DNA of 64,000 bases, taken from assembly GCA_040219085.1 (NCBI GenBank), contig JAVJTC010000033.1:1-64000 (forward strand), in the 5' to 3' direction. Below are positions 34,199 through 38,221 of this stretch, piece after piece. The translations under genes and the position numbers were made by a program. A model generated the notes under the pieces. It made no database searches. It saw nothing but the letters and a program-made list of their open reading frames with translations, and had not been told where the DNA came from. The DNA comes from Acidimicrobiales bacterium (GTDB taxonomy: Bacteria; Actinomycetota; Acidimicrobiia; Acidimicrobiales; JAVJTC01). Position 1 is the stretch's first letter; every line of letters begins with the position of its first letter.

Positions 34199-35054
34199 CG
34201 GCCATCTCCGGCTCGAGGCGCTTGAAGATGAGGTACCCGCCGGTGAGAAGGATCAGCGACGATGCGGACGCAATCGACAGGAGGCCCCAGTCCGGGGCTT
34301 CGCCTCCGAGGACGGCGGCACGATAGGTATCGATTACGGCAACCAGGGGATTCACCGCGGAATAGACCTTCTCCCAGCCCGGTGACAGGTCGATCGGGTA
34401 GGCGACCGGCGTCGCGAACAGGCCCATCTGGATGATGAGCGGAAGTGCCTGACCGAGGTCGCGGATGAAGACGACCACCCCGGCGACGATCAGGGTGACT
34501 CCGACCGTGAAGACGATCTGGACGACCAGTGCGACGAGCACCCAGTAGCTCTCCGGAGCGGGGGAGTTGCCGCTCAGGATGAACAGGAGTGGCAGCAGGG
34601 CCACTGCGATCGCGAAGTCGACGAGCGCGATGGCGATGTAGGTGAGGGGGAACACTTCGCGGGGAGCCCGCACCTTGTTGACCGACGCCGCCTCGAGGAC
34701 GAGTGACTGACCGCCGCGGGAGACCGACGAGGCGAAGAACGTCCACGGAAGCAGTCCGAGGTAGGTCGAGACGGCGTAGTCGGCGTCGGAGTCCCCGCCT
34801 AGGCCCGTGACCCGGTTGAACACGAAGACGAACACGACGAGGAGCAGGACCGGGGTGATGACGGCCCACAGGAGCCCGAGCCGGGTCTGGTGGTAGCGGG
34901 ACTGGAACTCGCGGCGTACCAGCGAACCTGTCAGCGGGCGTGCGGCCCACAGCTCGCCGAGCCACTCCCAGGTGAACCGCCGCTTGTACCACGTGCCGGG
35001 TTCCGGCTCGGCTCGGGTCACGCCGCCGCCCGGGGCGTGAGGGTCATCGGACAC
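34188..35054 (-). CDS. Polysaccharide ABC transporter permease (Wzm/TagG type)
   Basis: This 288-residue ABC-2-type permease has about six helices. The N-terminal REFQSRYHQTRLGLLWAVIT is the conserved amphipathic entry motif of the family. Helical stretches include LLLVVFVFVFNRV and ALVDFAIAVALLPLLFILSG, with YLIFKRLEPEMADV at the end. It pairs with the ATPase gene downstream (11-base overlap). Coexistence with a polymerase/ligase-like protein in the same locus means either two glycans or an unusual combined pathway. Confidence 0.92.
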   Translation of the reverse strand: MSDDPHAPGGGVTRAEPEPGTWYKRRFTWEWLGELWAARPLTGSLVRREFQSRYHQTRLGLLWAVITPVLLLVVFVFVFNRVTGLGGDSDADYAVSTYLGLLPWTFFASSVSRGGQSLVLEAASVNKVRAPREVFPLTYIAIALVDFAIAVALLPLLFILSGNSPAPESYWVLVALVVQIVFTVGVTLIVAGVVVFIRDLGQALPLIIQMGLFATPVAYPIDLSPGWEKVYSAVNPLVAVIDTYRAAVLGGEAPDWGLLSIASASSLILLTGGYLIFKRLEPEMADVA

Positions 35055-35117: not shown

Positions 35118-35660
35118 TCAGCGGAGCTCGGGAGCCATCCAGGCGACCTCGCCGTCGTCGTCGAAGTCGAAGAAGATCGGTTCGCCGTCGCGGGAGAGAT
35201 CGTCGTCGACGCGCAGGGTGACGTGGGCCTTCTGCGTGCTCCACTTGGCGATGTCACAGAGCAGCTCGACCACCTCGGCCGGAGTGAAGTGGCCGAACAC
35301 CTCCGCTCGCAGTTCGTCGTCGATGTCCGCCGGTCGGCTGAGGAACCGGTCGGCGAGACGTAGCGCGACGTCTGTGCGTGCGTCGAGGCCGGACTCACCG
35401 CGACGCTGCACCGTCGCGACCTCGTCCTCGCTCAGTCCGCTGTGCCTGGCGACCGCCAGGCGGATGGACATTCAGAGGTGACAGTCGTGATAACGGGCGC
35501 AGCGCAGGCGGACGAGCTCGGTCATCGCGGGGTCGATGGCGCGTAGGCGCACGACCGCCGCCTGGTAGTGGTCGAGCGCCTCGGTCATCTCGGGTTGGTA
35601 CGCGGCGCCCAGGGTCCGTTTCGAGAAACCCTCGGGGACAGGGATGCGGGCGCTGGTCAT
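35118..35660 (-). CDS. Predicted selenocysteine-containing CMD/AhpD-like protein
   Basis: Read from ATG 35660 (GGAGG ribosome site 6 bases upstream) to the stop at 35118, this is a 180-residue carboxymuconolactone decarboxylase (CMD) family protein with one in-frame TGA at 35472-35474. The TGA is codon 63 in CARYHDCHL-TGA-MSIRLAVAR. It is the second position of the CxxC redox motif, giving Cys60-His-Leu-Sec63. The reading frame and family similarity continue across it. A GGUC-loop hairpin follows at SECIS distance. Without readthrough the product would be two fragments of 62 and 117 residues, each lacking part of the helical fold. Expected role: thiol/selenol peroxidase or disulfide reductase. 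It overlaps the upstream paralogue by four bases. Sel machinery is not in the window. Confidence 0.8.
35444..35474 (-). promoter_or_regulatory. Predicted bacterial SECIS element downstream of in-frame UGA
   Basis: On the minus strand the UGA (35474-35472) is followed by 10 bases, then stem GCCUGGC (35461-35455), loop GGUC (35454-35451) and stem GCCAGGC (35450-35444). The seven pairs are perfect. The apical loop starts 17 bases after the UGA. The well-known E. coli fdhF SECIS also exposes GGUC at its apex at about this distance (18 bases by my count), the feature read by SelB. The element lies inside the coding sequence, as bacterial SECIS elements do. Confidence 0.78.
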
Positions 35661-36130
35661 GGGGGACCTCCGGAGGTGGCCGGGTCGGGCCCGAAGAGGC
35701 GTTCCGTGGCGACCCGGAGCCTCTGGGACTCGTCGAGTGCGAGTAGTGCGTGGATGAACCCGTAGAGCTCACCGGGGTTCATGTGTGCTGCCACAGCGGC
35801 CACCTGATCGTCGTTGGTCGTCGATACGTCGATCACGAACTGCTCGGCTAGGGCGAGACAGGCCCGGTCGCGTTCGTCGAAGTGATCCGAGCCGGGCCAG
35901 TCGCCGAGCGCGGCCATCTCGTCGGAGGAGACGGCGTCGGAGCCGGCGGCGAGTTCAGCGGCGCAGTCGTGGAGCATGGCGATGCGGAGGCGACAGAGCT
36001 CGGCGATCCGCCGCGGAACCGTCGCCGTCGCCGCGGCGCGGAATGCTCCCAGGTTCTGGTCCACCTCGGGCGCGTGCTCGACGAGCGCCGCGATACGCAG
36101 TGCTGAGCCCGTTGGATCCCCCGTGGTCAC
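35657..36130 (-). CDS. CMD-family protein lacking the second redox cysteine
   Basis: This 157-residue protein (GTG start) resembles the selenoprotein downstream. Its core helix reads AELCRLRIAMLHDCAAELAA, against ELVRLRCARYHDCHL-U in the neighbour. Cys56 aligns with Cys60, but the Sec position is Glu59. It is therefore not a classic CxxC enzyme and may be a non-redox or partner subunit. CMD-fold proteins assemble as oligomers, so a hetero-oligomer with the downstream protein is plausible. Its TGA overlaps the next ATG (ATGA). Confidence 0.7.
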   Translation of the reverse strand: MTTGDPTGSALRIAALVEHAPEVDQNLGAFRAAATATVPRRIAELCRLRIAMLHDCAAELAAGSDAVSSDEMAALGDWPGSDHFDERDRACLALAEQFVIDVSTTNDDQVAAVAAHMNPGELYGFIHALLALDESQRLRVATERLFGPDPATSGGPP

Positions 36131-37024: not shown

Positions 37025-38221
37025 ATGGCCGACCATGTTCTCACCGAGTACGACCACATCCGCGAGGCCTACCGCCAGAAGGCCCTGAAGCAGGCGCTCT
37101 ACGACGCCGGGGGCGTGGTGATGGCCGACACGCTCCTCACGCTGTGGGGCGACGACCACCGGCAGCGCCGGCGCCTCGAGAATCGCCTGTTCCGGCGTGA
37201 GACGTTCGAGTTCTACGAGAGCGAGCTCATGCCCGGCGCGATCAAGGAGGTGCTCGATCCCGCGCAGGCCCAGGGTGAAGGAGACGTCGTGCCGCTCTCC
37301 CGACGGATCGTCGTGAACCTGACGGCGATGGCGGCCGGAGTGGACCGGGTGGAGGGTACGCCCGAAGAGACCGACCGGATCTTCCGGTATGCGGTGAAGT
37401 TCTCCGAGGGGGCCACCGCGGTTCACAGCACCCGGGACCCCGAGGAGCTCACAGCCGAGGTCGCGACCGCACTCGAGGCGTGGGACGAGGAGTTCCTGGC
37501 GCCGTCGATAGCCCGGCGCGAGCGCCTGCTGGAGGGCCTGGAGGCCGGCGAGGTGGCGGAGAGCGATCTGCCGCCGGACGTGTTGATGATCCTGATGCGC
37601 AATCAGGACAACCTCGACCTGAGCCGTGACGTGATCCGCCGCGAGGTCGCGTTCTACATGCTGGCCGGGATGCATTCCACTGCGGCCGCCTCGACCCACG
37701 CCGTCCACGAGATCTTCGAGTGGCTCGATGCCGATCCCGGGCGGGCCGACCAGCTCCTCGGCGACGAGTTGCTGCTGCAACGGTGCGTGCACGAGTCCAT
37801 GCGGCTCCATCCGGCCAGCCCGGTCGCGATGCGTGAGGCGATCGAGCCCATCGACTTCTCGTGGGGACTGCACCTCGAGCCGGGGGACACGGTGACCCTG
37901 GACCTGATGTCGGGGAATCGCGACACAGCGGTGTTCGGTGAGGACGCTGCGGCGTTCAACCCCGACCGGAGCTTCCGTGATGACGTGCAGCCGTGGGGTC
38001 ACAGCTTCGGCGGTGGGCGTCACGCCTGCATCGGCATGGAGCTCGACGGCGGGATTCCGCCGGACCCCGACGGTGCCAAGTCGGTCCTGTTGGGCAGCGT
38101 CGCCCTCATCGTCGAAGGGCTGTTGCAGCGCGGTGCGCGCCGTGATCCTCAGGATCCTCCCACCCAGGACGAGACCACCACCCGCAAGTGGTGGGGGCGC
38201 TACCCGGTCCTGTTCAGCTGA
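37025..38221 (+). CDS. Cytochrome P450
   Basis: This 398-residue P450 has the I-helix region FYMLAGMHSTAAASTHAVHE, ExxR in CVHESMRLHP and the heme loop FGGGRHACIGMEL with proximal Cys335. The N-terminus begins within the usual B-helix area (DHIREAYRQKALKQALYDAG), so it is slightly short but complete. It is soluble, needing separate ferredoxin and reductase, which are absent here. The divergent SDR may process the same compound. Ribosome site GGGGGAGAG precedes the ATG. Confidence 0.9.
   Translation: MADHVLTEYDHIREAYRQKALKQALYDAGGVVMADTLLTLWGDDHRQRRRLENRLFRRETFEFYESELMPGAIKEVLDPAQAQGEGDVVPLSRRIVVNLTAMAAGVDRVEGTPEETDRIFRYAVKFSEGATAVHSTRDPEELTAEVATALEAWDEEFLAPSIARRERLLEGLEAGEVAESDLPPDVLMILMRNQDNLDLSRDVIRREVAFYMLAGMHSTAAASTHAVHEIFEWLDADPGRADQLLGDELLLQRCVHESMRLHPASPVAMREAIEPIDFSWGLHLEPGDTVTLDLMSGNRDTAVFGEDAAAFNPDRSFRDDVQPWGHSFGGGRHACIGMELDGGIPPDPDGAKSVLLGSVALIVEGLLQRGARRDPQDPPTQDETTTRKWWGRYPVLFS

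What the first reader, a model, noticed from the sequence alone, without database searches (positions are those of the whole stretch)
35118..35660. A CMD/AhpD-like gene with an in-frame TGA at the CxxC position: probable selenoprotein
Seen: one TGA (35472-35474) divides an otherwise continuous frame of 180 codons. The residues around it read HDCHL-TGA-MSIRLA, so translation as Sec gives Cys60-x-x-Sec63, the redox pair of AhpD/CMD proteins. The two pieces alone are half-domains. Established: Sec replaces Cys in several bacterial AhpD/CMD-type proteins. Inference: this is a true selenoprotein that ordinary gene callers would split or truncate.
Basis: partly seen in the sequence, partly recalled or inferred. 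Interest (0 to 1): 0.9.

Follow-up and report, generated by a model that had tools for sequence, protein, structure and literature searches.

The report
Selenocysteine CMD/AhpD protein with inactive partner
The gene that looks broken by a stop codon almost certainly encodes an intact redox protein carrying the rare amino acid selenocysteine; this kind of protein is already known, but here it is made together with an inactive sister protein, a pairing kept across distant bacteria.

Summary
Confirmed. The gene lies on the minus strand (35660 to 35118; 180 codons) and one in-frame TGA (35474-35472) sits exactly at the second position of a CxxC motif. The genome has tRNA-Sec (UCA), selA, selB and selD. 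Of 66 relatives found in public genomes, 44 have TGA at that position and 22 have Cys (21 TGC, 1 TGT). A hairpin meeting the published bacterial SECIS criteria follows the UGA. It shows compensatory changes, is stronger than synonymous recodings in TGA forms, and is absent in Cys forms. TGA forms occur in genomes with a clear tRNA-Sec (23 of 26), Cys forms mostly do not (2 of 21). So it is a real CxxU selenoprotein.

CxxU CMD/AhpD-like selenoproteins are a known kind, so this is a new member. No NCBIfam model reaches its cut-off for it, so a caller relying on those models would probably truncate it. The extra finding is its partner. A CMD-fold paralogue without the CxxC lies directly upstream in 58 of 66 genes checked (51 overlapping by ATGA), including Chloroflexota. 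Active and inactive domains are fused elsewhere, even in this genome. I infer a heteromer of one Sec-active and one redox-dead subunit that reduces peroxides or disulfides. Substrate and assembly are untested.

The parts
35118..35660 (-). Sec-containing CMD/AhpD-fold protein, 180 residues, ATG start, TGA stop at 35118-35120. Catalytic set by spacing: Glu48, Cys60, Sec63, Arg67
   Evidence: structure, fold matches
35472..35474 (-). In-frame UGA codon 63, read as selenocysteine (second position of CxxU)
   Evidence: TGA or Cys in all 66 relatives
35444..35461 (-). Bacterial SECIS hairpin: 7-bp stem GCCUGGC/GCCAGGC, loop GGUC (35451-35454), 17 nt after the UGA, -15.0 kcal/mol
   Evidence: covariation
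35657..36130 (-). Partner gene, 157 aa: CMD-fold paralogue without the CxxC pair (HDCAAE in its place), predicted redox-inactive subunit
35657..35660 (-). 4-nt stop/start overlap (ATGA) coupling partner and Sec gene; the same overlap in 51 of 58 pairs

Best explanation
The gene encodes a selenoprotein of the CMD/AhpD fold. During translation the UGA at codon 63 is decoded as selenocysteine by SelB and tRNA-Sec, guided by a SECIS hairpin 17 nt downstream inside the coding sequence (shown by comparative evidence; not shown biochemically). Sec63 replaces the second Cys of the AhpD-type CxxC, so the active site is Cys60-x-x-Sec63 with an invariant Glu48 12 residues upstream of the Cys, as Glu118/Cys130/Cys133 in M. 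tuberculosis AhpD. Inferred mechanism: the selenolate attacks a peroxide or disulfide, Cys60 resolves it as a selenenylsulfide, and a thiol reductant regenerates it. Translated with it through a 4-nt ATGA overlap is a CMD-fold paralogue that has lost the CxxC. I infer that the two assemble into a mixed dimer or ring, one subunit catalytic and one structural or regulatory. The stated confidence is for the selenoprotein with its SECIS; I put about 0.7 on the heteromer and about 0.5 on peroxide or disulfide reduction.
For: Sec machinery in the same genome: tRNA-Sec 64.9 bits with anticodon UCA, selB 283.8 bits, selA 382.8 bits, selD 341.5 bits, itself carrying an in-frame TGA. TGA/Cys exchange at exactly one column: 44 TGA, 21 TGC, 1 TGT among 66 loci. 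SECIS: 34 distinct TGA forms have mean z -2.59 against synonymous recodings (28 of 34 p<0.05), 21 distinct Cys forms +0.07 (1 of 21); 36 cells with both sides changed against 10.2 shuffled, 0 of 500 shuffles as high. All constraints of the published bSECIS model are met (PMC13188914). A clear tRNA-Sec (>=60 bits) in 23 of 26 genomes with TGA forms and 2 of 21 with Cys forms, Fisher p 3.8e-8. Median dN/dS downstream of the SECIS 0.11. The codon after the TGA is ATG in only part of the family (AAA/AAG, CGN, CTN elsewhere), so no restart. Partner upstream in 58 of 66 genes checked, 51 with exact ATGA overlap; active and dead domains fused in one ORF in L029, L032, L033, L039, L043, L046 and, in reverse order with its own in-frame TGA, in this genome at contig C22. 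Both subunits give AhpD/CMD folds.
Against: No experiment. The reaction is inferred from fold and motif only: the AhpD His137 position (CxxC+4) is an invariant Arg67 here, so the proton relay differs. Nearest solved structures are only about 20% identical. Peroxidase activity of the closest biochemically tested relative, PA0269, is weak (PMC3141380). Heteromer formation is inferred from gene order and fusions; 8 genes lack a detected partner. No other neighbour is conserved across lineages to name a pathway. The window protein sits on a long branch whose placement is unsure.
Confidence: 0.95

Rival explanations
1. Pseudogene or assembly error: the TGA is a nonsense mutation or a wrong base in a dead gene.
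For: A single TGA in a draft genome of 45 contigs could be an error.
Against: The same TGA occurs in 44 independent public loci; dN/dS downstream stays low, median 0.11; a covarying hairpin follows it.
Confidence: 0.01
2. Two genes, or stop-and-restart: the TGA is a true stop and translation re-initiates at the ATG that directly follows it (TGA-ATG).
For: In the window the codon after TGA is ATG, and each piece is an ORF.
Against: The next codon is AAA/AAG, CGN or CTN in most TGA relatives. The Cys relatives are one continuous protein over the same site. The fold needs both pieces: the CMD match spans residues 23-90.
Confidence: 0.02
3. UGA is read through as another residue (for example Trp) rather than Sec.
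For: Sequence alone cannot name the residue.
Against: Exchange is only with Cys; SECIS and Sec machinery are present; UGA is also this gene's own terminal stop.
Confidence: 0.01
4. Real selenoprotein, but its reaction is not peroxide or disulfide reduction. For example a reductive dehalogenation like the CMD-fold debrominase Bmp8, or a decarboxylation or isomerisation, with the upstream protein as a substrate-binding subunit.
For: Bmp8 (6ohi, 6ohj) is among the sequence and fold matches. The AhpD relay His is replaced by Arg67. Cytochrome P450 and SDR genes stand next to the pair in the window.
Against: Bmp8 is a remoter match (E 0.0013) than the AhpD-like PA0269 (E 2.4e-10). The P450 and SDR neighbours are not conserved across lineages.
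Confidence: 0.3

Closest known systems
CMD-like / AhpD-like CxxU selenoproteins (Sargasso Sea and GOS families: AhpD-like 1 COG2128, AhpD-like 2 pfam02627, CMD-like PF02627 CxxU)
   Same: Same fold family, same CxxU motif, same kind of SECIS after the UGA
   Different: The reports I read do not describe a translationally coupled CxxC-less CMD partner. I could not fetch their example proteins to test whether they belong to this subfamily
NCBIfam NF053654 YciW-related (seleno)protein
   Same: Best-scoring curated family; aligned over residues 41-150
   Different: 35.6 bits against a cut-off of 310: not a member
AhpD-like protein PA0269 (2o4d, 2ijc, 7xw1) and Atu0492 (2gmy)
   Same: Best solved sequence and fold matches; Glu-x11-Cys-x2-Cys spacing kept
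   Different: Cys instead of Sec, His instead of Arg67, about 20% identity; PA0269 is described as a homo-oligomer (hexameric ring)
Fused AhpD-like two-domain proteins with one Cys-less domain (Corynebacterium ureicelerivorans, Comamonas aquatica; sestrin in eukaryotes), PMC11429811
   Same: One active and one inactive AhpD-like domain
   Different: Fused and Cys-based; here two separate coupled genes with Sec, and a fused Sec version elsewhere in the genome

Membership tests
Bacterial selenoprotein | In-frame UGA aligned with Cys in homologues | tested here: met
   44 TGA and 22 Cys codons at the column in 66 loci
Bacterial selenoprotein | bSECIS: 3-9 nt loop, 4-16 bp upper stem, G in first two loop positions, 16-37 nt from UGA, MFE <= -7.5 | tested here: met
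   4-nt loop GGUC, 7 bp, 17 nt, -15.0 kcal/mol; criteria from PMC13188914
Bacterial selenoprotein | selA, selB, selD and tRNA-Sec in the genome | tested here: met
   all over curated cut-offs
Bacterial selenoprotein | Selenium found in the protein | not testable with these tools
   needs 75Se labelling or mass spectrometry
CMD family PF02627 | Pfam score over gathering cut-off | tested here: met
   32.2 against 23 bits
AhpD-type peroxidase | Glu, Cys, Cys/Sec and His proton relay (Glu118, Cys130, His132, Cys133, His137) | tested here: not met
   Glu48, Cys60, Sec63 in place; the His137 position is invariant Arg67 and the His132 position is Leu62
AhpD-type peroxidase | Peroxidase or AhpC-reducing activity | not testable with these tools
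   biochemistry needed
NCBIfam NF053654 and other curated (seleno)protein models | Score over the curated cut-off | tested here: not met

The most novel reading that the evidence does not exclude
A widespread, so far unnamed two-subunit enzyme in which a Sec-containing (or Cys) CMD subunit works only in complex with a redox-dead CMD sister translated from the same overlapping message, a bacterial split counterpart of the active/inactive domain pair seen in sestrins.
Probability: 0.5. Interest if true: 0.6.

Novelty: new member of a known kind. Interest (0 to 1): 0.45.

Why it matters
The gene would probably be annotated as two fragments or one truncated protein, because no curated NCBIfam model reaches its cut-off; the same holds for the relatives tested from Acidimicrobiia, other Actinomycetota and Chloroflexota. 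The SECIS also fixes protein sequence: all TGA forms listed keep a Val codon (GTN) where the GU loop lies, while Cys forms mostly have Asp, Glu, Ala, Ser or Pro there. The conserved dead partner gives a concrete test of whether CMD-fold redox enzymes work as active/inactive pairs.

Tried and rejected
Rfam and ARAGORN on the window gave no SECIS or tRNA-Sec there; the machinery is elsewhere in the genome. A conserved pathway neighbourhood was sought and not found: apart from the partner, neighbours are lineage-specific. Cytochrome P450 and SDR next to the pair were considered as functional partners and set aside for the same reason. Plasmids hold only remote homologues. No paper in the library couples selenoproteins with Acidimicrobiia in a relevant way, and none was found for Bmp8. 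Tree: Sec and Cys forms need at least two switches, but direction and the window's place are unresolved. The tRNA-Sec threshold of 60 bits was chosen after seeing the gap between about 63 and 53 bits; at the Rfam cut-off of 47 the counts are 23 of 26 against 4 of 21.

Full report
Observation. The finding is real and the coordinates are correct, with the strand added: the gene is on the minus strand, ATG at 35660, stop TGA at 35118-35120, one in-frame TGA at 35474-35472 = codon 63. Read through, the 180-residue protein matches Pfam CMD over its cut-off, with a match that spans the TGA. Long spurious ORFs are common in this DNA, so the frame alone would not have been convincing.

Sec machinery. 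The genome that holds the window (3.77 Mb, 45 contigs, 96% complete) has a tRNA-Sec with anticodon UCA at 64.9 bits, selB (283.8 bits) next to selA (382.8 bits), and selD (341.5 bits). selD itself has an in-frame TGA in GAG-U-ACK.

Relatives. A search in the same order found the nine next-best homologues (37-46% identity) all with one TGA, aligned exactly at U63, while several remoter ones have Cys there. A scan of one genome per species found 66 relatives: 44 with TGA, 21 TGC, 1 TGT at that column and nothing else (L107, which contains an N, is counted from its reading). They include Acidimicrobiia, other Actinomycetota and Chloroflexota (Dehalococcoidia, Tepidiformaceae). The codon after the TGA is ATG in only part of them, which excludes a conserved restart. 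Selection on the part downstream of the hairpin is purifying (median dN/dS 0.11). A tRNA-Sec of at least 60 bits is present in 23 of 26 genomes with TGA forms and 2 of 21 with Cys forms (Fisher p 3.8e-8); the three TGA exceptions are draft genome bins, where a missing tRNA gene is easily explained.

SECIS. Seventeen nt after the UGA the window has a 7-bp stem with loop GGUC, -15.0 kcal/mol, z -3.1 against synonymous recodings. Across 34 distinct TGA sequences the mean z is -2.59, and 28 have p<0.05; across 21 distinct Cys sequences it is +0.07 with one p<0.05. On an alignment of 34 sequences (including five from remoter subfamilies) four of the seven pairs have compensatory changes, 36 cells against 10.2 in shuffles and 0 of 500 shuffles as high; sliding the partner strand destroys the signal. 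The loop keeps GU (AGUU, GGUC, CGUU) in the 34 distinct TGA sequences. In the Chloroflexota forms the register shifts by one, with a GUU loop (read by eye). The published bSECIS constraints are met (PMC13188914). The loop GU is the start of a Val codon, so all TGA forms have Val70, while the Cys forms mostly have Asp, Glu, Ala, Ser or Pro there.

The partner. Directly upstream (36130-35657) lies a paralogue of the same fold. Profile comparison of the two families gives 97.5% probability, E 5.6e-12; its model has mean pLDDT 90.2 and matches the same AhpD-like structures. It has lost the CxxC: the window has HDCAAE, Chloroflexota QADDRE or similar. Its stop overlaps the Sec gene's start as ATGA. 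Of 66 genes checked (65 loci and the window), 58 have the partner and 51 have the exact overlap, including 15 with Cys forms. In six remoter Cys loci the inactive and active domains are fused in one ORF. In this genome a second CMD gene with an in-frame TGA (contig C22, 312 aa, VDCGWU) carries the Sec domain followed by an inactive partner-like domain. Gene coupling across phyla plus fusions is good evidence, though not proof, that the two proteins form a complex.

Mechanism. Literature spacing for AhpD is Glu118, Cys130, Cys133, His137, and for PA0269 Glu36, Cys48, Cys51, His55 (PMC3141380). Here Glu48, Cys60 and Sec63 keep the spacing and are invariant (Sec or Cys at 63) in 46 sequences, while the His is an invariant Arg67. 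I infer selenolate attack on a peroxide or disulfide with Cys60 resolving; this step is not shown. The strict AhpD proton relay is not met, so I do not file it as an AhpD peroxidase. A different reaction, such as the dehalogenation of the fold relative Bmp8, remains possible.

Novelty. CxxU selenoproteins of the CMD and AhpD-like families have been known since the Sargasso Sea survey. No NCBIfam model reaches its cut-off for this subfamily. Active/inactive two-domain AhpD proteins are described for Cys forms (PMC11429811). I therefore call it a new member of a known kind, with the coupled inactive partner as the part that deserves work. Whether published CxxU CMD proteins already have such a partner could not be tested here. 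The library of papers is partial, so absence of a report is weak evidence.

Noticed in passing
G000 contig C22:2736-3035 region, locus L119: A second CMD gene with an in-frame TGA (312 aa, VDCGWU) in the same genome, with a fused CxxC-less CMD domain at its C-terminus.
   Followed up: partly
L018 (G000:C17:51915-52877): selD itself carries an in-frame TGA (GAG-U-ACK), a known type of SelD selenoprotein.
   Followed up: partly
34889-34971: ARAGORN calls a tRNA-Cys inside the ABC-2 type permease gene; Rfam finds no tRNA there, so it is probably a false positive.
   Followed up: partly
Order-level search, (for example L030, L031, L034, L035, L038, L045, L048): Many CMD-family matches across the order carry one in-frame TGA, in several separate subfamilies: CMD selenoproteins seem to have multiplied in these bacteria.
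   Followed up: partly
37025-38221: Cytochrome P450 gene divergent from the SDR/CMD/CMD-Sec genes; not conserved next to the pair in most relatives.
   Followed up: partly
L088, L108: Amycolatopsis pithecellobii and Solirubrobacter soli have a strong tRNA-Sec yet the Cys form of this protein.
   Followed up: no
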